Source: Candidatus Stahliibacteriota bacterium (GTDB lineage: Bacteria > Hydrothermota > Tepidihabitantia > SM23-42). From it: 61,880 nucleotides of DNA. Every line of letters begins with the position of its first letter. Within the stretch, counting starts at the first letter, position 1. Shown one piece after another: positions 44,555 to 54,767 of this stretch. Location of the stretch: the NCBI GenBank assembly GCA_030602565.1, contig JAUVZL010000008.1, forward strand, positions 1 through 61,880. The letters run 5' to 3'. Made by a program: the position numbers and the translations under genes. The notes under the pieces are model-generated. The model saw only the letters and a program-made list of their open reading frames with translations, made no database searches and was not told the DNA's origin.

Positions 44555-45325
44555 TTACGGCGTTTTCAAAAGTATACCGCGCTTTGATGCGTTGACAAAC
44601 TCGATTGTTTCCCGAGCAAAATCGCCAAAACAATCTTTTTCTTCCAACCGCTTAAGACATTTTGTTAGGGTATTGGAAGACTCATAGATCAACCGATACA
44701 ATGCCTTGATGGTTTCAACTTCTTGAGCCGTAAACCCATTAAGTTGCAGCCCCCGCACATTCACCCCGAATACTCTTGCCGGGTTCCCGCGCGCCAACAC
44801 ATACGGCGGTATGTCCTTATTTAGATATGACATAGCACCGAGCATTGCGTATTTGCCGATTCTGCAGAACTGGTGCACCCCAACAAGCCCTCCGATATTT
44901 ACGAAGTTTTCGAGTTCAACATAACCGCCGAGCTGACTCCCACTTGATATTATATTATTATTGCCGATTCGAATGTTGTGTGCAATGTGCACATAGGTCA
45001 TTATAAAATTATTATCGCCGATGCATGTTGCCTTGTTTTCACCGGTCGCTCTGGAAATAGTTGTATATTCTCTAATTATATTATTGTCGCCGATCAGGCA
45101 CTTTGATGGTTCGCCCTTAAAATGATAGTCTTGCGGGTCCACACCGATCTGGACACCAGCGCATATTGTATTGTCCTTTCCGATTATCGAACCGTTTCTG
45201 ATTATAACATAACCGCCTATTTTGTTATCTGCACCGATCTTGACATCATCCTCAACGACTGAATAAGGACCAATGATGACTGATTTATCAACCTTTGCGT
45301 TTTTGCTGACAGTAAACTGCTTCAT
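44555..45325 (-). CDS. lpxA: Acyl-ACP-UDP-N-acetylglucosamine O-acyltransferase (LpxA)
   Basis: The 256-residue trimeric left-handed beta-helix enzyme attaches 3-hydroxyacyl to UDP-GlcNAc, the first step of lipid A. Hexapeptide repeats ([LIV]-G-x-x-x-x) run from ~15 to ~175, with the catalytic His in MTYVHIAHN and the C-terminal helical part starting near NVRGLQLNGF. It is direct evidence for an outer membrane with lipid A. It lies last in the long operon, 33 bp after fabZ, the usual partner. No lpxD or lpxB is present. Confidence 0.93.
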   Translation of the reverse strand: MKQFTVSKNAKVDKSVIIGPYSVVEDDVKIGADNKIGGYVIIRNGSIIGKDNTICAGVQIGVDPQDYHFKGEPSKCLIGDNNIIREYTTISRATGENKATCIGDNNFIMTYVHIAHNIRIGNNNIISSGSQLGGYVELENFVNIGGLVGVHQFCRIGKYAMLGAMSYLNKDIPPYVLARGNPARVFGVNVRGLQLNGFTAQEVETIKALYRLIYESSNTLTKCLKRLEEKDCFGDFARETIEFVNASKRGILLKTP

Positions 45326-45358
45326 TCTTGTAGGTTCTTTAGAAAAAAGAGTTTGAAC

Positions 45359-45772
45359 TTACTTCTTAATGCCTGCCATGATCACTGCCTGACAGACAAC
45401 CTCATCATCAACTCTGGCAACCCCTGATATCCTAACTACATCACCACGTTTCTGCAAAATTTCGACTTCCATAATGAGTGTATCACCCGGTCGTACTGTT
45501 TTCTTGAACCGCGTCCTGTCAATACCGAGGAATAGAGGAATAGCGCCCTTATTCTTGCGGAGCAACATCACGCCACCGGTTTGCGCGAGTGCCTCAACCA
45601 TTAAAACACCCGGCATAATCGGCTCTTTCGGAAAATGACCCGCAAAGAAACATTCATCAGTGCGCACATGCTTTTTCGCAACAATCCTGGTATCACTAAT
45701 TTCCACTACTTCATCAACAAACAAAAACGGTGGCCGATGCGGTAAGATTTCCTTAATTTCATCTATGTTCAC
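45359..45772 (-). CDS. fabZ: 3-hydroxyacyl-ACP dehydratase FabZ
   Basis: The 137-residue hot-dog-fold enzyme dehydrates hydroxyacyl-ACP in fatty acid synthesis, competing with LpxA for the same substrate. Motifs: LPHRPPFLFVDEV near the N-terminus, the catalytic His in AGHFPKEPIMPGVLMVEALAQTGG with the Glu in the following helix. Position next to lpxA is typical. Confidence 0.95.
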   Translation of the reverse strand: MNIDEIKEILPHRPPFLFVDEVVEISDTRIVAKKHVRTDECFFAGHFPKEPIMPGVLMVEALAQTGGVMLLRKNKGAIPLFLGIDRTRFKKTVRPGDTLIMEVEILQKRGDVVRISGVARVDDEVVCQAVIMAGIKK

Positions 45773-45815
45773 AGTACCCCCTAACGCAATTTAAATAACC
45801 ACGGCTTCGCTTTGT

Positions 45816-46697
45816 TCAACTGTCACGTTCATTACGTATCTTATCCCGGCATTGCTTGAGCATACTTACTTCTTCTTCACCGCAGCCGGTAAGCCCGATC
45901 CTTACCGAATCAGCATGCTTACCGTGACAGTCAGAGCCTCCAGTCATCAACAAATCGTTTTTCAAGGCAATCTCGTACAATCCCTGGCGCCAGCGCGGCG
46001 TGTGCTCTGGGTGCCAGACTTCAATGCCCAGAGCACCATCTATAATTAACTGATAGATGACAGATTCGCTATTTATGGTCCCTGGATGCGCGATAACTGG
46101 AACGCCGTTGTATTCCTTTATTATTCTTATTACCTCTCTCGGGTGGATGTTTTTCTTCGGGACATAGTACGGCAACCCATACCCTAAGTATTTATGAAAG
46201 GCTTCAGTTATTGATTTAACATAACTGTTTTCCACAAGAACTTCAGCGATATGGGGTCTGCCCAAAGAGCAATCTTTGGCAACCATCTTAATCTGCTCAA
46301 ACTCCAGTTTGACCCCGTTACCGGAGAGTTTACTGATGATTTTCTTCACCCGCTCAGCACGATGTCTCTTGAATTCGTCCAGGTATGATAACAAACTAGG
46401 GTCTTTGTAATCCACGTAGTAACCAAGCATATGAACATCCAGGTCACCGATGTTTGAACTCATCTCAACTGCTGGGATAACCTCAAAACCATTTTTAGAA
46501 TAGAACATCGCTTCTTCAACGCCCGACACTGTATCATGATCAGTAATTGCGATTGCCTTTAGATTCGATCGCTTGCAGATTTGCACTATTTCGTAAGGCG
46601 TAAATGAGCCGTCAGAATATATCGAGTGAATATGGAGGTCAGCGAAATATCTATTTGGCGGTGTAGGTGATGGAGCGCCTTGAGTGCTTCTGGTCAA
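45816..46697 (-). CDS. PHP-domain phosphoesterase (RNase AM / YciV-like)
   Basis: The 293-residue protein has the PHP metal motifs: DLHIHSIYSDGS (H-x-H), ITDHDT, PAVEMSS, a GRPHIAEVLVENSY segment, VIAHPGT, and GGSDCHGKH at the end. This is the YciV/RNase AM type, reported to act as a 5'-3' RNA exonuclease or 3',5'-nucleotide bisphosphatase. The best start is TTG at 46697, overlapping the ExeA stop (TTGA). Confidence 0.88.
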   Translation of the reverse strand: MTRSTQGAPSPTPPNRYFADLHIHSIYSDGSFTPYEIVQICKRSNLKAIAITDHDTVSGVEEAMFYSKNGFEVIPAVEMSSNIGDLDVHMLGYYVDYKDPSLLSYLDEFKRHRAERVKKIISKLSGNGVKLEFEQIKMVAKDCSLGRPHIAEVLVENSYVKSITEAFHKYLGYGLPYYVPKKNIHPREVIRIIKEYNGVPVIAHPGTINSESVIYQLIIDGALGIEVWHPEHTPRWRQGLYEIALKNDLLMTGGSDCHGKHADSVRIGLTGCGEEEVSMLKQCRDKIRNERDS

Positions 46698-47518
46698 CTC
46701 GACTTGGCCTTAAGTCCGAGATCAGAACTGACGTCGTCTATAATTTTGGCTTCAATCACTTCCCGTTTCAAAAGGAACCCCTCTAACAATGCGTTGTCAC
46801 ATATCGCATTGATTGTGCGTGGTATGCCTTTTGAATATGTGTATACTTTCTCCAAAGCCTCTTTGGTCATGAGTGGCTTCACGCAACCGGCGACTCGAAG
46901 ACGATGGATAATATAACTGGTAGTTGCCTTTGCGTCCAGTTCCTCAAGAACACAACGGACCGCAATGCGTTGATATAACGGTGGGTCGAGTTTCAAATAG
47001 TCTTCCATCTCTGGCAAACCGAAGAGGATAAAGTTCAAAAGCTTACCGTGCTCTGATTCCAGATTGAGCAAACCACGGATTTCCTCCATTATTTCTTTGG
47101 TTTGCAACATATTAGCTTCGTCGATCAGAATGACTACTTTCCTGTTTTGACCTGTCAAATCCAGAAGACGGTGGTAAATAGCGGTTATTATCTCTATTTT
47201 GTTTTCTGACTCAATCGGCGTCTCGAGCATCAGGGCGATTTTCTTCAAAAACCACAAAGAAGTGATTTCCGAATGAATGATCACCAACAGGGTTGCTTCA
47301 ACATCATCATCGATCAGTTGATCTAAGAGCCGCCTCGATAATGTCGTCTTACCGGTCCCGATATCACCGATCATCAAAGCGAGCCCCTTCTCAGTTTCAA
47401 CTGCGTGAGTCAGTTTCACCAGGGATTTTGAATGTTGTGGTGAGTCGTAGTAGAATCTTTCGTCAGTGGCAAAACTAAAGGGGTGTGCTTTTAGCTTATA
47501 GAATTTCTCGTAACCCAT
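46694..47518 (-). CDS. ExeA/GspA-type AAA ATPase, copy 1
   Basis: The 274-residue protein opens MGYEKFYKLKAHPF, then FYYDSPQH, Walker A GDIGTGKTT, Walker B VVILIDEAN, and the sensor region IVHRLRVAG-like stretch near the end. It is the cytosolic ATPase module of ExeA/GspA (secretion) or MshM (pilus) proteins without the periplasmic peptidoglycan-binding part. Its closest visible relative is copy 2 at 49300-50121. Which machine it serves cannot be told from the window. Confidence 0.88.
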   Translation of the reverse strand: MGYEKFYKLKAHPFSFATDERFYYDSPQHSKSLVKLTHAVETEKGLALMIGDIGTGKTTLSRRLLDQLIDDDVEATLLVIIHSEITSLWFLKKIALMLETPIESENKIEIITAIYHRLLDLTGQNRKVVILIDEANMLQTKEIMEEIRGLLNLESEHGKLLNFILFGLPEMEDYLKLDPPLYQRIAVRCVLEELDAKATTSYIIHRLRVAGCVKPLMTKEALEKVYTYSKGIPRTINAICDNALLEGFLLKREVIEAKIIDDVSSDLGLKAKSS

Positions 47519-47527
47519 GATTGTTTC

Positions 47528-49300
47528 CTATAAATATGTGATCTTAGACTTCTTAGCCCGGACCTTAGCCGTTTTTATAGATTCAGGTTTTGCTTTAGCT
47601 GGTGGTTTAGTGACAATTTTCCTGCCTTTTTTCTTTGCTTCGGCAAGGTATTTATTCTTAAGATCATTAATTCTCCGTGTCAAATTAGGCACTGTCTTGT
47701 CGAGTTTATAAGCATACATGTAGGATTTTAACGCCTCTTTCATTTTCTTCATCTTCTCATAGCAGTTACCGAGGAGAAAATGAATGCCAAAGTATTCCCG
47801 TGCTGGTCGATTTGTAATTTTTAGACCGGCGCTCAAAATTTTTACCGCATCATCTGCCTTACCACGTTCGAGAAAGCATGATCCGATCATTTCATACGCC
47901 TTGAGTCTAAGCTCAGGGTCTTTTGCGGCAATTTCAAATTCTTCAATAGCTTCTTGATAAAGACCCATGCCCTTATAGGCAACCCCGAGATCATAACGCG
48001 AACGAAAATCGCCCTCACCAATAGATTCAAAGACCTCACGCCGGAATTGAGAAATTAACCCTTCGATACTTTGAATGCTATCAGATTTCTTCTCATCTTC
48101 AAGTTCAGTTCTAAGAACTTCGCCAAGGTCAATGTAATCCTGGGGCTGTTCAAATGCCGAAAACATCTCTTGAGCCTTGATGTTTTCTGAATCAAATTCA
48201 AGGATTTTCTTGCATAAATCCCGGGCTTCACTCTTCGCTTCGCGCCGACTCAGTGATTCAGCTAAATCTACCATCGCCTCTATTTGTAAATCCATATCCT
48301 TTTTTATCTTACTGATCTCAACAAGATGCTGACGGGACCTGAGATCAAATGGTCTCAGGTCAGCTATTCTCTTATTAAGATCAAAAGCCTTATCATAGTT
48401 CTTATTATTCCATGACTCATTTGCCGCACTGCTGAAGCAATCAATGGCTTCTTCTTCAGAACCAAGGTTGAGATAGAGCTCACCCAACTCAATAGTCTTA
48501 TCAATTTCGGATAATACAACAGGTGTTTCTTTGACACCCTCTTCTTCCTCAGCTGAGATCTCATCATCTTTGAGCAACTCAGCCACTTCAGGTGATACAA
48601 AATCCTCAAGCGGAATATCCGATTCTTTTTCTTCTTCTGTTTCCTCTTCAGTAACTTCTTCTTCTACTTCAGGTTCCTTAACAACTTTTTCTATTTCTTC
48701 CTCGACTTCTTTTTCAACTTCTGCTTGTGGTTCTTCGACGACCATTTTTTCTCTCAGTTTCTCCTGTTTGTCTTCGATTTCATGCGCTTCTTTTAGAAGT
48801 TCTTTGCCCTCTTGTTTTTTTCCAACCTTTTCGTATATTGCAGAAATCGTCTCAAGGATTTTCGGGTTGTTAGGAACGAGTTCTTTTATAGTATTATAGG
48901 CTTCCAGCGCAGCATCTAGATCATTGGCTTTTATCTTCCGTTCTGCATACTCAAGGAAGTAATTCGCTGCCTCACCGCGCTGGTCTAATTGCTTGTGCAA
49001 CTCGCCGAGTAACTCATAAATTGTTGTCCTGTCCTTTTCAAGTCTGAGTATCTTCTTACATAACGCGATGGCATTTGGAAAGTAAGTTTCTTCTTTGAAG
49101 ACCCGCACACCTTGTTCGTATACACTGAGCGCGTCATTTTTACGATTGACCTTTATAAGAAGATCACCGAGTTTATTGAATAGGGAACCCTCTTTGGGAA
49201 ATTCTTTTACTGCTTGTTCTAGCTCGGTTATGGCTTTTTTAGTGTCACCTTTGGCAACAAACTCGGCAACCTTCCTTTTAACCTCACCAAGCTCAGACAT
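47528..49300 (-). CDS. TPR-repeat protein, partner of ExeA copy 1
   Basis: The 590-residue protein has TPR helices at ~5-165 and ~265-560, with a Glu-rich, low-complexity linker (~180-255). No signal peptide is seen, so it should be cytosolic. The C-terminus is strongly basic (EAKKKGRKIVTKPPAKAKP ... KVRAKKSK). It starts inside the stop codon of ExeA copy 2 (TAATG), so the two are translationally coupled. Function unknown; scaffold is a guess. Confidence 0.82.
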   Translation of the reverse strand: MSELGEVKRKVAEFVAKGDTKKAITELEQAVKEFPKEGSLFNKLGDLLIKVNRKNDALSVYEQGVRVFKEETYFPNAIALCKKILRLEKDRTTIYELLGELHKQLDQRGEAANYFLEYAERKIKANDLDAALEAYNTIKELVPNNPKILETISAIYEKVGKKQEGKELLKEAHEIEDKQEKLREKMVVEEPQAEVEKEVEEEIEKVVKEPEVEEEVTEEETEEEKESDIPLEDFVSPEVAELLKDDEISAEEEEGVKETPVVLSEIDKTIELGELYLNLGSEEEAIDCFSSAANESWNNKNYDKAFDLNKRIADLRPFDLRSRQHLVEISKIKKDMDLQIEAMVDLAESLSRREAKSEARDLCKKILEFDSENIKAQEMFSAFEQPQDYIDLGEVLRTELEDEKKSDSIQSIEGLISQFRREVFESIGEGDFRSRYDLGVAYKGMGLYQEAIEEFEIAAKDPELRLKAYEMIGSCFLERGKADDAVKILSAGLKITNRPAREYFGIHFLLGNCYEKMKKMKEALKSYMYAYKLDKTVPNLTRRINDLKNKYLAEAKKKGRKIVTKPPAKAKPESIKTAKVRAKKSKITYL

Positions 49301-50121
49301 TACTCAAATTTCAATCCTAAATTTGTGACTACTCTTTCTATAATTGTATCGTCAATACTTTTTTTCCTCTGCATATAACCCTCTAAAAGGGCATTGTCGC
49401 AAGTTATGTTTACAAGCCTCGGTTTGCCATCTGAATAGCGACAGATCAAATCAACCGCCCTGGGCGTAAAAATTTCATTTGTCACGCCAGCAATACCGAG
49501 CCGATGACCTATATAAGCTCTTATCGTATCACTACCCATTGACTTCAACTTGACCTTAACCGCGATGCGCTGATACAGAGCACGATTGGATGTCAGGTAC
49601 GACTCCAGCTCAGGCAACCCACTGAGGATAAACGAAATCAATCTGGTATCAGCTATTTCAAGATTCAGAAGTCCTCTAATCTCTTCTAATATCTCAGGAC
49701 TCGTAATTTTGTTTGCCTCATCGATAATAATAACTGTCTTTTCGTTTCTACGATATATCTCATTGAGCCTTTGAGAAATTCGACTTATTATTTCAGTTGT
49801 CGAAGAGCCAAAATCTCTAAGGCCAACAAGGTTTGCAATTTTAGTGAAAAGCCAACCCGGCGCGAATTCAGAATGGGTCAGGACGATCAAGCCAACCTGA
49901 TAGTTCCCTTGTGCATAAAGTTCACTGAGAATCTTACGCACCAGGGTTGTCTTGCCAGTCCCTATATCACCCAACAGAACTGCCAACCCTCGCGTGCCGC
50001 GTGCCGCATGGACCAGGTATTCGCGCGCCAGAGCATGCTGAGGGGAATTGAAATAGAACTTTGGATCAGGATGATTAGTAAATGGTTCAAATTTGAAACC
50101 GTAAAATTCCTGATAGCCCAC
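49300..50121 (-). CDS. ExeA/GspA-type AAA ATPase, copy 2
   Basis: The 273-residue paralogue of copy 1 opens MGYQEFYGFKFEPF, then FYFNSPQH, Walker A GDIGTGKTT, Walker B VIIIDEANKI, GLPELE and RLVNITCDNALLEG. The two copies are the same along their whole length in layout, and each pairs with a TPR gene: a duplication of a two-gene unit. AGGAGG precedes the ATG. Confidence 0.88.
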   Translation of the reverse strand: MGYQEFYGFKFEPFTNHPDPKFYFNSPQHALAREYLVHAARGTRGLAVLLGDIGTGKTTLVRKILSELYAQGNYQVGLIVLTHSEFAPGWLFTKIANLVGLRDFGSSTTEIISRISQRLNEIYRRNEKTVIIIDEANKITSPEILEEIRGLLNLEIADTRLISFILSGLPELESYLTSNRALYQRIAVKVKLKSMGSDTIRAYIGHRLGIAGVTNEIFTPRAVDLICRYSDGKPRLVNITCDNALLEGYMQRKKSIDDTIIERVVTNLGLKFE

Positions 50122-50134
50122 TTATCCTCCTGTT

Positions 50135-52063
50135 TTAGAGAAAAGCGATATTTTCGCCTTTTCTTTCTTCAGTATCAGGTTCTTTTTTGGGAAGATCCTT
50201 AGATAGCTTTTCTGACTGGGTTGAAGGTGTTTGGTCAATTATCGTCGGATACATCTCCTCGGCTGGTTCCTGTATTATTTCCTTTGGTCCCATCTTAGCT
50301 GGCTGCACAAAAGGTTCAGGCTGCGCTGGCGGTGATATGGATATTTTCTGAGGAGGTATAGTCTTATCAGATTCTCTTTTTGGTTTTTCAAATGTTATAT
50401 CCTTACCACCCATTAGTGTATACATCTCCTTTACGTCTTTATACTCAGGGTTAATGCTAATAATCCGTTCGGTTTCCCTTAATGCATTGTCAAAATCTCC
50501 TAACCCCTCATAAGCAGACGCGAGCAGATAACGTAACTCGACTTTCTGGGTTTCAGAAATCTCTTCATACAATAAAGTAGGAGCAATCACTTTTTTGGCT
50601 TCACTATAATGACCCAGCTTGATAAGCGACGCACCATTTATCTCAAGCGATAACGGCCATGTACCCTTTTCTTGCTTAACGTCAACAACATAGCTCAAGG
50701 CAGTCGCATATAAGCCAGCATCAAAAGCCAGCTTTGCCAGGGTCATCTTTTTCTTAACATCAGTTTCCTCCCACACTATTGCTTTTCTGAAATCATCAAA
50801 TTCCTGGGCAACCTCGAAACTTGGTATACTTGGTGCCTTAGCTTCATCGAGTAAGAATTCTATATCCGCTATCTGCCCCTCTAATTGTGGCACATCATGT
50901 CCTTTTTCTACACTTGGCTCAACTTCGTCAGAAGGTTCTTGTGTTGTAGTATCTGTCGCAGCAACAAAACCCTCAATCTCTCTGTCCAGATCCTCGAACA
51001 TCTCCATTGCTTGTTCATCTCCCGCTGTTTGTTCTGGAGTTTCGGGTTGAGCAGTTTCTTCTTCTGCCTTCGGTTCACTAACAGTCTGGTCGATAATATC
51101 TTCAACACTGGGCTTTAGATCTTCCTCTATTTCAGCTTGAGGAAACGCTTTCTCAGTCTTTGGTTCGCCTGCTTCGGTCGGAATGGTTTCTTCAACTTGA
51201 GATTCTGGCACCGCTTGTTCCACAACCTCTTCAGTGGCGGCTTTAGCTTCGACAGGTGCACCGCCACTTTTTAACTCATTAATTCTGTTTATCGCATCCT
51301 TGTTGTTTGGATCGATCTCAATAATTCGGTTCAGTACATTTATTGCCTCTTCGGTTTCATTGCTGTCGACCAAATCACTTACCGCCTTTTCAAATTCAAC
51401 TATCGCCTCATCCTTTGAGCCAATCTCATAGAGTAGGTTACCCAGTTCAATACGGCTTTTAGGATCGAGTTCCTCACCGCCATCTGTTTGTGGAAACAAC
51501 TTGTCGACTTCCTCAAGTATTTCCTGATCACCTGCCTCTTCAGCAAGAGATTTGACTTTTTTCAATTCATCCTCGGCATCCTGTAACCTGCTGGTTGAAT
51601 AGAGAACCTTAACAAAGGAGAATCGCAAAGCTAAATTTTTTGGCTGCAGCTCAACTACTTTGCGCAACCCAGATATGAACATAGCATTTTCCTTGTTGTC
51701 AATCGCCCATGTGCACAAATCAAGTATTGTGTTGATCGCCTTATCAGGTAAACCATAAAATCTATAAAGATCAGCCAGACGTGCGATAATTTCCTCATTG
51801 GATTTATCTATTCCTGTAATTTTCTCCAAACAAAGTATCGCTTCGGCGTATTGATTCGCATTGGTGTAGTAGTCACTAGCACTTTCATACCGCTGAATAG
51901 CCTCGGCATCTCTGCCCAATTTTAGAACCAAGTCTCCAGAGAGCTCCACGGCTCTCGCATGTTTAGGGTCATCGCTCAAGATCCGGCGCAGTATTATCTG
52001 AGCCTTTTCAAAACTTCCGTCTTCTATATATTCTCTGCCTTTATCAAGAAGATCTACTTCCAT
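50135..52063 (-). CDS. TPR-repeat protein, first gene of the ExeA operon
   Basis: The 642-residue cytosolic protein has N-terminal TPRs (~5-140), further TPRs (~205-270), a long acidic, Pro-containing linker (~275-400), another TPR block (~440-550), and a Pro/Lys-rich tail. The architecture copies that of the 47528-49300 protein (TPR, acidic linker, TPR, basic tail), supporting a shared origin. It begins at a leaderless ATG. Confidence 0.82.
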   Translation of the reverse strand: MEVDLLDKGREYIEDGSFEKAQIILRRILSDDPKHARAVELSGDLVLKLGRDAEAIQRYESASDYYTNANQYAEAILCLEKITGIDKSNEEIIARLADLYRFYGLPDKAINTILDLCTWAIDNKENAMFISGLRKVVELQPKNLALRFSFVKVLYSTSRLQDAEDELKKVKSLAEEAGDQEILEEVDKLFPQTDGGEELDPKSRIELGNLLYEIGSKDEAIVEFEKAVSDLVDSNETEEAINVLNRIIEIDPNNKDAINRINELKSGGAPVEAKAATEEVVEQAVPESQVEETIPTEAGEPKTEKAFPQAEIEEDLKPSVEDIIDQTVSEPKAEEETAQPETPEQTAGDEQAMEMFEDLDREIEGFVAATDTTTQEPSDEVEPSVEKGHDVPQLEGQIADIEFLLDEAKAPSIPSFEVAQEFDDFRKAIVWEETDVKKKMTLAKLAFDAGLYATALSYVVDVKQEKGTWPLSLEINGASLIKLGHYSEAKKVIAPTLLYEEISETQKVELRYLLASAYEGLGDFDNALRETERIISINPEYKDVKEMYTLMGGKDITFEKPKRESDKTIPPQKISISPPAQPEPFVQPAKMGPKEIIQEPAEEMYPTIIDQTPSTQSEKLSKDLPKKEPDTEERKGENIAFL

Positions 52064-52068
52064 AAAAA

Positions 52069-52096
52069 ATTATAACCTAATTCATAACTTTGTCAA
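52069..52096 (-). promoter_or_regulatory. Leaderless promoter of the TPR-ExeA operon
   Basis: On the minus strand: TTGACA (52096-52091, inside the end of ftcD), 16 bp, TATAAT (52074-52069), 5 nt, ATG (52063). Confidence 0.75.
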
Positions 52097-53587
52097 GAAG
52101 ATATTTTCGATATTTTCGTATAGATTTCCCTCTTGTTTTCTTAGCGAATCAAGCTCTGTCTTAATGGATTCGTTGAATACTGCATCGGTTATCGAACTGA
52201 GGTTTATCAAGACGTTAACCCGGGCAGCCATAAACGCACTGTGGAGCGAGTAAAGCGCCACACCAACATCAGAAATCGCGTTCTTTAAACCTTTCTGAGC
52301 AAGCGTCTTGGCATAGGGGTAGACAAAAAGGATTTTCTTACAGACCTCAAACGGCACTTGAGCTGCATGTTTGTAGGCATTTTGCACGGCAATCTGCTTA
52401 TCCTCCTTATCCTTATCTGTCTCATCAGGTAACTTGAACGCTACCAAAACTTGATCAAAAGCCGACTTGTCTTTATTGATGAATTTGTAGAACTCGTAGG
52501 TAGTTAGTTTTAAAAATCCGTGGAAATCCAGCAGTTCTTCATCTTTTGTCTTGTTCACGGTGATACCGGTAACCATTGAGAGTAGCGCCGTACCGAGAGC
52601 AGCTTCGAGCGCAGCAACACTGCCGCCACCTGGTGTAGGTCGTGCCAGAGCCAAAACATGCAGGAAATCCATGATTGATTGCTTTGAACCTTTCCCGTGG
52701 AGCTTGTACTCCAGAATCTGATCTTCGGTAAAGCGGTCCAGCTGTAAGTAGTAAATCGCTGTATCGATCAATGCCTTTTCAGGAACCAAACCGACAATCT
52801 CTGATTCTTTGATGCTGATGCCGTACCTTTCTGCCTCGCGCTTTACTGTTTCGAAAACTCGATGCAATGGTGTCTTTGTATAGTCTGTCATGTTACAGGA
52901 GATCTGAGCACGATTCTCTTCTTTCAGCATGAAACCAAGTGATTTAGTATACCGGTATCCACCACTGCCAAACCTGATTGCCTTGGCAATTTTCTGGGCA
53001 ATCGAAACATCTGTCGTATTGAGGTTTATGTTAAAAGCAATAAGGGGAAACCGGGCACCAATTACCGTGGCACCGGCAGTTGGATGGAGTTTTGGCTCGC
53101 CAAAATCTGGTCGACGTTCAGGGTTGGTTTCGATCTCATCTCTCAACCCTTCGAATTCACCTTTTCTTATCGCCGCAAGATTCTGCCGGTCAGGTCGAGT
53201 TGCCGCAGCTTCGTAAAGGTAGACTGGTATCTTCAACTCCTCAGCAACCCGCTTGCCTAACCGTTTTGCCAGCTCAACGCACTCACGCGTTGTAACGTTG
53301 CTGATCGGTACAAACGGGACAACATCAGTAGCGCCCATTCTCGGATGCTCACCTTTATGTTTGGTCAGGTCAATCAACTCTGATGCTTTCTTGATACCTC
53401 TAAATGCTGCTTCCAGTACGGCCTCAGGTTCACCTACGAATGTCACAACTGCACGATTATGGTCAGCATCTTTTTCTTGGTCGAGCAATTCTACACCAGC
53501 ACTCTTTATTTCAGCTAAAATCTGATCGAGTCTTGCCTGATTCCTCCCCTCGCTAAAATTGGGGATGCACTCAACTATTTTTTCCAT
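52082..53587 (-). CDS. ftcD: Bifunctional glutamate formiminotransferase / formiminotetrahydrofolate cyclodeaminase
   Basis: The 501-residue fused enzyme takes the formimino group of N-formiminoglutamate onto tetrahydrofolate and deaminates it to 5,10-methenyl-THF. The formiminotransferase half (1-~295) starts VECIPNFSEGRN and has DADHNRAVVTFVG, KGEHPRMGATDVVPFVP and GARFPLIAFNINLNT. The cyclodeaminase half (~305-500) has ARPTPGGGSVAALEAALG. It overlaps hutI by 17 nt, so histidine (or imidazolone) breakdown feeds one-carbon metabolism. hutH and hutU are not here. Confidence 0.95.
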   Translation of the reverse strand: MEKIVECIPNFSEGRNQARLDQILAEIKSAGVELLDQEKDADHNRAVVTFVGEPEAVLEAAFRGIKKASELIDLTKHKGEHPRMGATDVVPFVPISNVTTRECVELAKRLGKRVAEELKIPVYLYEAAATRPDRQNLAAIRKGEFEGLRDEIETNPERRPDFGEPKLHPTAGATVIGARFPLIAFNINLNTTDVSIAQKIAKAIRFGSGGYRYTKSLGFMLKEENRAQISCNMTDYTKTPLHRVFETVKREAERYGISIKESEIVGLVPEKALIDTAIYYLQLDRFTEDQILEYKLHGKGSKQSIMDFLHVLALARPTPGGGSVAALEAALGTALLSMVTGITVNKTKDEELLDFHGFLKLTTYEFYKFINKDKSAFDQVLVAFKLPDETDKDKEDKQIAVQNAYKHAAQVPFEVCKKILFVYPYAKTLAQKGLKNAISDVGVALYSLHSAFMAARVNVLINLSSITDAVFNESIKTELDSLRKQEGNLYENIENIFLTKL

Positions 53588-54767
53588 ATATTATCCTTCC
53601 TTTTTTTATAGTATACCTGACAATATCCTCGCCAAAATAATACGGAATTTTCTTGTAATTATCAACGTTAAATATGACAAAATCAGCTTGTTTACCGGTT
53701 TCAATGCTACCGATTCGGTTAAACAAACACAATGCCCTGGCGCCGTATTTGGTAGCTCCCAGAAGAGCATCTTCAACATGCATGCCATAGACAATACAGG
53801 CGAGCGCAATAATCTTGGGCATTGAATAAATCATACACGAACCAGGGTTATAATCTGAAGCGAGCGCTGGATGACAGTACAGTTTCTTATAGGTTCTAAC
53901 ATTCGGTTTCTTCTTGAACTGTAAAAAAAGTGTTGCGCCAGGTAGCAAAGTAGGAACAACACCTGCTTTTTTCATTGCTCTTATCGCCCCCTTTGTTGAA
54001 TACTCCAGGTGATCAGCTGATGCACATTTCAATTTCGCGGCAAGATATGCACCGTGAATATCAGCGAATTGATCCGCATGTATTTTAAGCCCAAAACCGT
54101 ATTTTTTCGCACTCAATAAAACCTTCTCGCTCTCGCGCCTGGTAAAAGCAATCTTATCACAAAAAATATCACAAAAATCAGCTAACTTTGCTCTGGCAAC
54201 TTTGGGGATAATCTCTTCAATGACAAGATCTATATAGTCCCGCCGCTTCATCTGATCAGGGATCGTATGAACCAGATAGGTTGGTACAATATCAAGTTCT
54301 GAATCCTTTTTCAGCCGTTTTATCACTCTGAGGGTTTTTATTTCCTCGGCAGGCGACAAGCCGTAGCCACTCTTGATTTCAACGGTCGTAGTGCCGTGTT
54401 TGACAAGGTTTTTCAACCTTTTCATGGCTGACTTGTACAAAATATCTTCACTTGCCTGATGCGTCATACGCACCGTACTGGCAATACCACCGCCAGCTTT
54501 GGCGATCTTTTCGTATTTGACACCGGTAACGCGCATCGCAAATTCGTCTTCGCGCGAACCCCCGTAGACCAAATGGGTATGAGAATCTACCAACCCCGGA
54601 CATACTACGCAACCATTAGCATCGACTACGTTTCTTGCTTTATCACTCTTTATTTGACCAACTTTTCTGATCTTACCATTTTCAACGAGTACTGAAGCGT
54701 TTTTCAAAATACTGAGTCCTCTTTTCATAGTCAGTATCTCTGAGGCGTTGCGAATCAACATAGCCAT
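53571..54767 (-). CDS. hutI: Imidazolonepropionase
   Basis: The 398-residue amidohydrolase opens 4-imidazolone-5-propionate to formiminoglutamate. It has GLVDSHTHLVYGGSREDEF (H-x-H), EIKSGYGL, LKIHADQF and SDYNPGSC, all family marks. The first ATG (54767) has exactly 5 nt after a TAGAAT -10 box, so the leaderless form starts there rather than at the next ATG two codons on. Confidence 0.95.
   Translation of the reverse strand: MAMLIRNASEILTMKRGLSILKNASVLVENGKIRKVGQIKSDKARNVVDANGCVVCPGLVDSHTHLVYGGSREDEFAMRVTGVKYEKIAKAGGGIASTVRMTHQASEDILYKSAMKRLKNLVKHGTTTVEIKSGYGLSPAEEIKTLRVIKRLKKDSELDIVPTYLVHTIPDQMKRRDYIDLVIEEIIPKVARAKLADFCDIFCDKIAFTRRESEKVLLSAKKYGFGLKIHADQFADIHGAYLAAKLKCASADHLEYSTKGAIRAMKKAGVVPTLLPGATLFLQFKKKPNVRTYKKLYCHPALASDYNPGSCMIYSMPKIIALACIVYGMHVEDALLGATKYGARALCLFNRIGSIETGKQADFVIFNVDNYKKIPYYFGEDIVRYTIKKGRIIYGKNS

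What the first reader, a model, noticed from the sequence alone, without database searches (positions are those of the whole stretch)
44555..52063. Duplicated TPR-ExeA unit driving an operon that ends in fabZ-lpxA
Two TPR/ATPase pairs (same order, same domain plan, start-stop coupled) are followed by a PHP nuclease and two lipid A/fatty acid genes, all on one strand with one visible promoter, which is leaderless. ExeA-type ATPases normally serve export of surface structures. Here no membrane partner is nearby and both TPR proteins look cytosolic. It may be a new envelope-assembly or motility ATPase system tied to outer-membrane growth.
Basis: partly seen in the sequence, partly recalled or inferred. 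Interest (0 to 1): 0.6.

Follow-up and report, generated by a model that had tools for sequence, protein, structure and literature searches.

The report
Duplicated SgmX-like TPR–ATPase unit
In a little-known bacterial phylum, two scaffold genes each paired with a motor-type ATPase have stayed together since early in the phylum's history, and they look like helpers of the small GTPase MglA, which sets front and back in gliding bacteria, rather than a device for building the outer membrane.

Summary
On the minus strand, 52063 to 44555, lie TPR1-ATP1-TPR2-ATP2-PHP-fabZ-lpxA. The genome is Candidatus Stahlbacteria/WOR-3.

The four-gene core occurs across the phylum. Both ATPase paralogs form phylum-spanning clades, so the duplication is ancient. 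The fabZ-lpxA tail is local to one order, so the link to outer-membrane growth is not supported.

Both ATPases are AAA+ proteins of the ExeA/MshM/TIGR03015 kind, but form their own clade, apart from pilus-, chemotaxis- and glycan-linked relatives. TPR2 resembles SgmX, the MglA-GTP effector of Myxococcus: SgmX is the top NCBIfam hit for 17/17 TPR2s and for 0/5 control TPR proteins, and the matches cover both ends of SgmX, including its MglA-binding repeats. Unit-bearing families almost all carry a true MglB-MglA pair elsewhere (16/17, against 1/20 without the unit). Only three independent co-changes are visible, so this is suggestive. One clade lost type IV pili together with TPR2-ATP2 but kept TPR1-ATP1 and MglAB.

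Both TPR proteins end in a conserved short hydrophobic tail, perhaps an ATPase hook.

Best reading: a duplicated MglA-effector/ATPase module. What the ATPases do is inferred.

The parts
50135..52063 (-). TPR1: 642-aa soluble TPR scaffold, TPRs at both ends, acidic middle, tail ENIAFL
49300..50121 (-). ATP1: 273-aa AAA_22 ATPase, ExeA/MshM/TIGR03015 kind, ATP1 clade
47528..49300 (-). TPR2: 590-aa soluble SgmX-like TPR scaffold, tail KSKITYL
46694..47518 (-). ATP2: 274-aa AAA_22 ATPase, ATP2 clade, 44% identical to ATP1
45816..46697 (-). PHP phosphoesterase (RNase RNM/nucleoside bisphosphatase-like), linked in many families but not all
45359..45772 (-). fabZ, linked only in f1/f2; probably a passenger of the operon
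44555..45325 (-). lpxA, linked only in f1/f2; probably a passenger of the operon
52069..52096 (-). Promoter TTGACA-N16-TATAAT of TPR1; its -35 lies in the 3' end of ftcD; conserved in f1/f2
50138..50155 (-). Codons of the conserved TPR1 C-terminal tail (ENIAFL)
47531..47545 (-). Codons of the conserved TPR2 C-terminal tail (KITYL)
49945..49971 (-). Walker A of ATP1 (GDIGTGKTT)
49711..49722 (-). Walker B of ATP1 (DEAN)
52082..53587 (-). ftcD (formiminotransferase-cyclodeaminase), conserved upstream neighbour, not part of the unit
53571..54767 (-). hutI (imidazolonepropionase), conserved upstream neighbour with its own promoter, not part of the unit

Best explanation
The four genes are an anciently duplicated effector/ATPase module of the MglA polarity GTPase. 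Two cytosolic TPR scaffolds each work with their own AAA+ ATPase of the ExeA/MshM kind. TPR2 is SgmX-like: its C-terminal TPR domain would bind MglA-GTP, its N-terminal TPR domain would reach the pilus machine or another client at the pole, and ATP2 would load, remodel or release that complex using ATP. TPR1-ATP1 would do a parallel job that does not need type IV pili. Shown here: gene structure, phylum-wide linkage, ancient duplication, the specific resemblance of TPR2 to SgmX at both ends, co-occurrence with true MglB-MglA, joint absence of type IV pili and TPR2-ATP2 in one clade, and the conserved C-terminal tails. Inferred: MglA binding, polar location, the tail as a hook for the ATPase, and what ATP hydrolysis does.
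For: (1) SgmX (NF052243) is the top NCBIfam hit for TPR2s; 17/17 match it, up to 3.6e-48. N-termini align to SgmX about 6-201 and C-termini to about 867-1064, the region of the last three TPRs, which bind MglA-GTP (PMC7668184; PMC11580455). Five control TPR proteins never list SgmX. (2) A MglB-MglA pair is present: MglA 1.7e-80 to Myxococcus MglA, MglB profile 2.9e-50 to Myxococcus MglB. By family, 16 of 17 with the unit have this MglB and 1 of 20 without it does. On an rpoB tree about 3 independent pairs change together and almost none the other way. (3) In f4/f8, T2SSE above cut-off and secretins are missing and so is TPR2-ATP2, while TPR1-ATP1 and MglAB remain. (4) In Myxococcus the gene after sgmX encodes a 'putative Sec system ATPase' (PMC3983030). 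(5) Two of three families that lack ATP2 have also lost the TPR2 tail.
Against: TPR2 scores 80-165 bits against an SgmX cut-off of 1800, so it is not an SgmX ortholog by that standard, and for 2 of 10 isolated C-terminal fragments MamA beats SgmX. The co-occurrence rests on three independent changes (sign test p = 0.25), and both traits could follow lifestyle. The unit and mglBA are not adjacent. G121 has the unit without this MglB; G141 has the reverse. That MXAN_5765 is ExeA-type was not checked, and its inactivation had no effect on S-motility. Tail exceptions: two f4 genomes lack the TPR1 tail but keep ATP1, G017 lacks the TPR2 tail beside ATP2, and G121 keeps it without ATP2. No docking of the tail was predicted.
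Confidence: 0.5

Rival explanations
1. It is an assembly or support ATPase of type IV pili or type II secretion, like MshM-MshN or ExeA-ExeB, with TPR proteins as cytosolic partners.
For: Both ATPases best match TIGR03015 and belong to the ExeA/MshM superfamily. A real MSHA-like locus with secretin, ATPase, TPR protein, MshE-type ATPase and MshG-type protein exists in the same phylum. TPR2-ATP2 is missing together with type IV pili in f4/f8.
Against: f4/f8 genomes keep TPR1-ATP1 with no T2SSE ATPase above cut-off and no secretin. f5, f6, f7 and f9 have both families but no unit. The unit's ATPases form their own clade (100/98), apart from the MSHA-type ones. The TPR proteins have no membrane segment. 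Deleting mshM or mshN does not reduce MshA pili (PMC4624765).
Confidence: 0.2
2. It is a housekeeping module unrelated to polarity, for instance an ATP-dependent assembly or RNA-processing helper working with the neighbouring PHP enzyme.
For: PHP directly follows the last ATPase in f1, f2, f4, f8, f11, f12, f13, f16 and f21. In f30 the second ATPase has moved to a dapF-guaB-hslVU cluster, and in f3 the unit is followed by ispE-prs.
Against: PHP is not at the locus in f3 and f30, where the TPR-ATPase core persists. Changing housekeeping neighbours and near-universal hutI look like conserved gene order rather than shared function. The specific SgmX match would be unexplained.
Confidence: 0.2
3. 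It serves outer-membrane growth, as the fabZ-lpxA end of the operon suggests.
For: In f1/f2, fabZ and lpxA follow on the same strand and probably share the transcript.
Against: Linkage only in f1/f2. lpxA is present in f5, f6 and f7 without the unit, unlinked in f4, and missing from G005, which has the unit.
Confidence: 0.05

Closest known systems
SgmX (MXAN_5766) and the downstream ATPase gene MXAN_5765 of Myxococcus xanthus
   Same: Cytosolic TPR protein with TPRs at both ends and an unmatched middle; the two ends of TPR2 align to the two ends of SgmX; the next gene encodes an ATPase (putative Sec system ATPase, PMC3983030); the organism has MglA and MglB.
   Different: SgmX has 1,060 aa and 14 TPRs and is followed by tamB/tamA-like genes; here there are two TPR-ATPase pairs in another neighbourhood. 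The family of MXAN_5765 was not verified here.
MshM-MshN of the MSHA pilus
   Same: ExeA-type ATPase gene next to a TPR protein gene.
   Different: The MSHA-type TPR protein has a membrane segment and sits in a pilus operon; the unit's TPR proteins are soluble, precede the ATPase, and TPR1-ATP1 persists without pili. The ATPases fall in separate clades.
XrtA/PEP-CTERM system ATPase (TIGR03015)
   Same: Best NCBIfam model for both ATPases.
   Different: Scores of 186-193 bits against a cut-off of 324.5; no exopolysaccharide or exosortase genes at this locus.
TnsC of Tn7-like/CAST transposons
   Same: Related AAA+ fold (VchTnsC) whose partner TnsB docks by a short C-terminal hook on an unconserved linker (PMC9371665).
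   Different: No transposase or DNA role here; an analogy of mechanism only.
Bd2492-MglA of Bdellovibrio
   Same: A TPR protein that binds MglA and sits at one pole (PMC3983030).
   Different: No ATPase partner reported; encoded with TamAB-like genes.

Membership tests
ExeA/MshM/TIGR03015 ATPase superfamily | AAA_22 domain preceded by the FYxLxxxPFxxxPDPxFxYxSPQH-type N-terminal motif | tested here: met
   Both ATPases
GspA/ExeA proper | Transmembrane segment and C-terminal peptidoglycan-binding domain | tested here: not met
   273-274 aa, maximum 19-residue hydropathy 1.45, only P-loop-type Pfam hits
XrtA/PEP-CTERM ATPase TIGR03015 | Score above the curated cut-off of 324.5 bits | tested here: not met
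   186.4 and 193.3 bits
MshM-MshN (MSHA pilus) | Located in, or dependent on, a type IV pilus machine | tested here: not met
   TPR1-ATP1 kept without T2SSE or secretin in f4/f8; separate clade. TPR2-ATP2 alone does follow pili there.
SgmX | Score above the NCBIfam cut-off of 1800 bits over 1065 positions | tested here: not met
   80-165 bits; only about 200 positions at each end align
SgmX | C-terminal TPR domain that binds MglA-GTP | tested here: inconclusive
   The homologous stretch is present in TPR2; binding cannot be tested here
SgmX | Cytosolic, no membrane segment, TPRs at both ends | tested here: met
MglA/MglB system in the same genome | Ras-like GTPase MglA next to Roadblock protein MglB | tested here: met
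   G000 C47:10488-11670 (L216); MglA 1.7e-80, MglB profile 2.9e-50 to Myxococcus proteins
TnsC-like transposition regulator | Adjacent transposase | tested here: inconclusive
   Pfam of the genes around the unit in the window shows none; neighbours in relatives were identified only in part

The most novel reading that the evidence does not exclude
TPR1-ATP1 and TPR2-ATP2 are a previously undescribed ATP-driven arm of the MglA polarity system. Each TPR scaffold recruits its own AAA+ ring through a C-terminal hook peptide, and the ATPase loads or strips MglA effector complexes at the pole. One pair is dedicated to type IV pili and the other serves a pilus-independent polar process. The uncharacterised ATPase gene next to sgmX in Myxococcus would be the same thing.
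Probability: 0.22. Interest if true: 0.78.

Novelty: new variant of a known kind. Interest (0 to 1): 0.5.

Why it matters
MglA/MglB is a bacterial counterpart of eukaryotic polarity GTPases. How its effector SgmX activates pilus machines is unresolved, and the ATPase gene beside sgmX has no known role. A phylum in which an SgmX-like protein has stayed paired with an ATPase, in duplicate, with one pair missing together with pili and the other kept, makes two questions testable: does the ATPase act on the MglA effector, and what does MglA control in cells without pili? It also offers a short conserved tail as a candidate docking motif.

Tried and rejected
A link to outer-membrane growth was rejected on linkage and distribution. 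A link to histidine breakdown was rejected because hutI is near universal with or without the unit. An obligatory T4P/T2SS role was rejected by f4/f8. From gene lengths alone I first took the operon around the f30 ATPase for a pilus operon; reading the proteins showed dapF-guaB-hslV-hslU-hisS-aspS instead, recognised by eye. A similarity between MshN C-termini and the TPR tails was dropped, because MshN carries a membrane segment and its end should be periplasmic.

Structure work was weak. The first AlphaFold job was sent without an alignment by mistake and gave pLDDT 45. The second (TPR2 tail read through its TAG stop into ATP2, 13 rows) gave pLDDT 56, an AAA+ topology and an undocked tail. 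That says nothing either way about docking, since the tail is tethered right beside the ATPase start.

TPR2 (the L127 homolog) found no plasmid match, and plasmid matches to the ATPases were general ExeA-like proteins. MXAN_5765 could not be looked up.
Full report
Observation. Pfam and NCBIfam give TPR arrays for the two large proteins, AAA_22 for the two ATPases, PHP, FabZ and LpxA. Spacing is 13 bp, a TAATG overlap, 9 bp, a 4-bp overlap, then 43 and 33 bp. Upstream on the same strand, 18 bp away, is ftcD, preceded by hutI. The genome belongs to Candidatus Stahlbacteria/WOR-3: near relatives found by sequence carry those names. It holds only two close ExeA-type ATPases, these two. Family codes f1, f2 and so on are those of the genome search tool; the window's genome is in f1.

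Promoter. A perfect TTGACA-N16-TATAAT lies just upstream of TPR1. It is found in all 20 relatives of families f1 and f2 where the region can be read. The ATG follows 5-6 nt after the -10 box only in this genus. The same kind of layout appears nine times in the window against 0.11 expected, so leaderless starts are common here and not special to this unit.

Conservation. In f1 and f2 the order hutI-ftcD-TPR1-ATP1-TPR2-ATP2-PHP-fabZ-lpxA is kept in most genomes; many of the breaks are contig ends or assembly gaps. Beyond the order, TPR1-ATP1-TPR2-ATP2, usually with hutI before and often PHP after, occurs in many other families. In f3 it is followed by ispE and prs instead. In f30 ATP2 has moved next to dapF. 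In f4 and f8 the TPR1 region is split in two ORFs and only it, ATP1 and PHP remain. fabZ-lpxA follow only in f1/f2.

Duplication. A tree of 80 ATPases puts ATP2 proteins from many families in one clade (99/97). ATP1 proteins fall in another (92/83), apart from three divergent ones from f20 and f21. All unit ATPases together form a clade (100/98) separate from ExeA relatives in an MSHA-like pilus locus, in CheW/MCP clusters and in a glycan cluster. So the pair was duplicated before these families parted, and the simplest account is that f4/f8 lost the second pair. Walker A, Walker B and a QR motif are invariant in both.

What it is not tied to. No T2SSE match above the family cut-off and no secretin was found in any of the nine f4/f8 genomes, which still hold the ATP1-type unit (one is cut at a contig end). 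Both families are present in f5, f6, f7 and f9, which lack the unit. LpxA and HutI do not follow the unit either.

What it is tied to. Roadblock proteins (PF03259) are absent from all f5, f6, f7 and f9 genomes and present in nearly all unit-bearing ones; other kinds of Roadblock protein are wider across the phylum. The Roadblock ortholog next to a Ras-like GTPase proved to be MglB with MglA. A search with this MglB alone, counting matches above 180 bits, follows the unit's distribution: 16 of 17 unit families have it and 1 of 20 others does (Fisher p 2e-8, not corrected for kinship). An rpoB tree of 80 genomes shows about three independent co-changes and almost never an opposite one, with a sign test of p = 0.25. 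This is suggestive only. G013 and G065, which lack the unit but have close unit-bearing relatives, may be assembly gaps; G013 lacks hutI as well.

SgmX likeness. All 17 TPR2s match the SgmX model, and it is the best hit of every one whose full table was printed. The matches sit at SgmX positions 6-201 for the N-terminus and 867-1064 for the C-terminus, not at arbitrary repeats. Five other TPR proteins, including TPR partners of the CheW- and MSHA-linked ATPases, never list SgmX. In Myxococcus the last three TPRs of SgmX bind MglA-GTP (PMC7668184, PMC11580455), SgmX is cytosolic with TPRs at both ends (PMC7519303), and the next gene encodes a putative Sec system ATPase (PMC3983030) whose loss does not affect S-motility (PMC7668184). 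TPR2 is far below the SgmX cut-off, so I call it SgmX-like, not SgmX. TPR1 is less clear: 4 of 15 match SgmX.

Tails. TPR1 proteins end in patterns such as ENIAFL, RIEFL, HIHFL or KIVFL. TPR2 proteins end in KSKITYL, KKISYI, KISYM or RISFL. The linker before the tail is poorly conserved. In the own genome no other long ORF ends in the TPR2 pattern. The f30 TPR2s keep it though ATP2 is elsewhere, so it is not a by-product of gene overlap. Of three families without ATP2, two (f20, f29) have also lost the TPR2 tail and one (f28) has kept it; the eleven families with ATP2 in which the end can be read keep it (Fisher p = 0.03, uncorrected). Exceptions within families are G017 for TPR2 and two f4 genomes for TPR1. 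TnsB docks on the related AAA+ protein TnsC by such a tail (PMC9371665), and the ATPase model, though of low confidence, is closest to Cdc6/Orc1 and TnsC. Docking here is an inference.

Mechanism. The simplest reading is that MglA-GTP binds the C-terminal TPRs of TPR2, exposing or placing its N-terminal TPRs at a pole, and that ATP2 acts on this complex. TPR1-ATP1 would do the same for a client other than pili. The steps from MglA binding onward were not tested.

Verdict. A real, old, phylum-wide unit; a new variant of a known kind; more likely a polarity effector module than an envelope-assembly machine.

Noticed in passing
L083:6832-10356 (G025), L084:11150-12838 (G015), L159:8236-12548 (G121), L160, L162: Other ExeA-type ATPases sit in chemosensory clusters with CheW and MCP genes, in several cases directly after a TPR protein: an ExeA-TPR pair attached to chemotaxis genes.
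   Followed up: partly
L153:2060-9037 (G110); similar in L154 and L163: MSHA-like pilus locus in WOR-3 relatives: secretin, MshM-like ATPase, membrane TPR protein, MshEN-T2SSE ATPase, T2SSF protein.
   Followed up: partly
window 16551, 28651, 33555, 33666, 38512, 44290, 44381, 52061, 54765: Nine promoter-like arrays end 4-8 nt before an ATG, against 0.11 expected by shuffling: leaderless transcription looks common in this genome.
   Followed up: partly
L221:5089-8543 (G028, family f4): One MglB gene followed by four MglA paralogs in tandem, in a lineage with no type IV pilus ATPase or secretin; f4 genomes carry 5-10 Roadblock domains.
   Followed up: no
L217:7670-9150 (G000 C92): A TPR protein with a C-terminal Roadblock domain, followed by a short second Roadblock gene, about 8 kb from a PilT-like ATPase; similar neighbouring pairs recur in f1/f2.
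   Followed up: no
L095:9974-10789: ATP2 of G002 seems to begin with an isoleucine codon where its relatives have ATG.
   Followed up: no
L150:7852-10292 (G136): ExeA-type ATPase copies in tandem, two intact and one broken, inside a glycan biosynthesis cluster.
   Followed up: no
L073:11194-11871: A DUF4159 protein directly after PHP in f4, in place of fabZ-lpxA.
   Followed up: no
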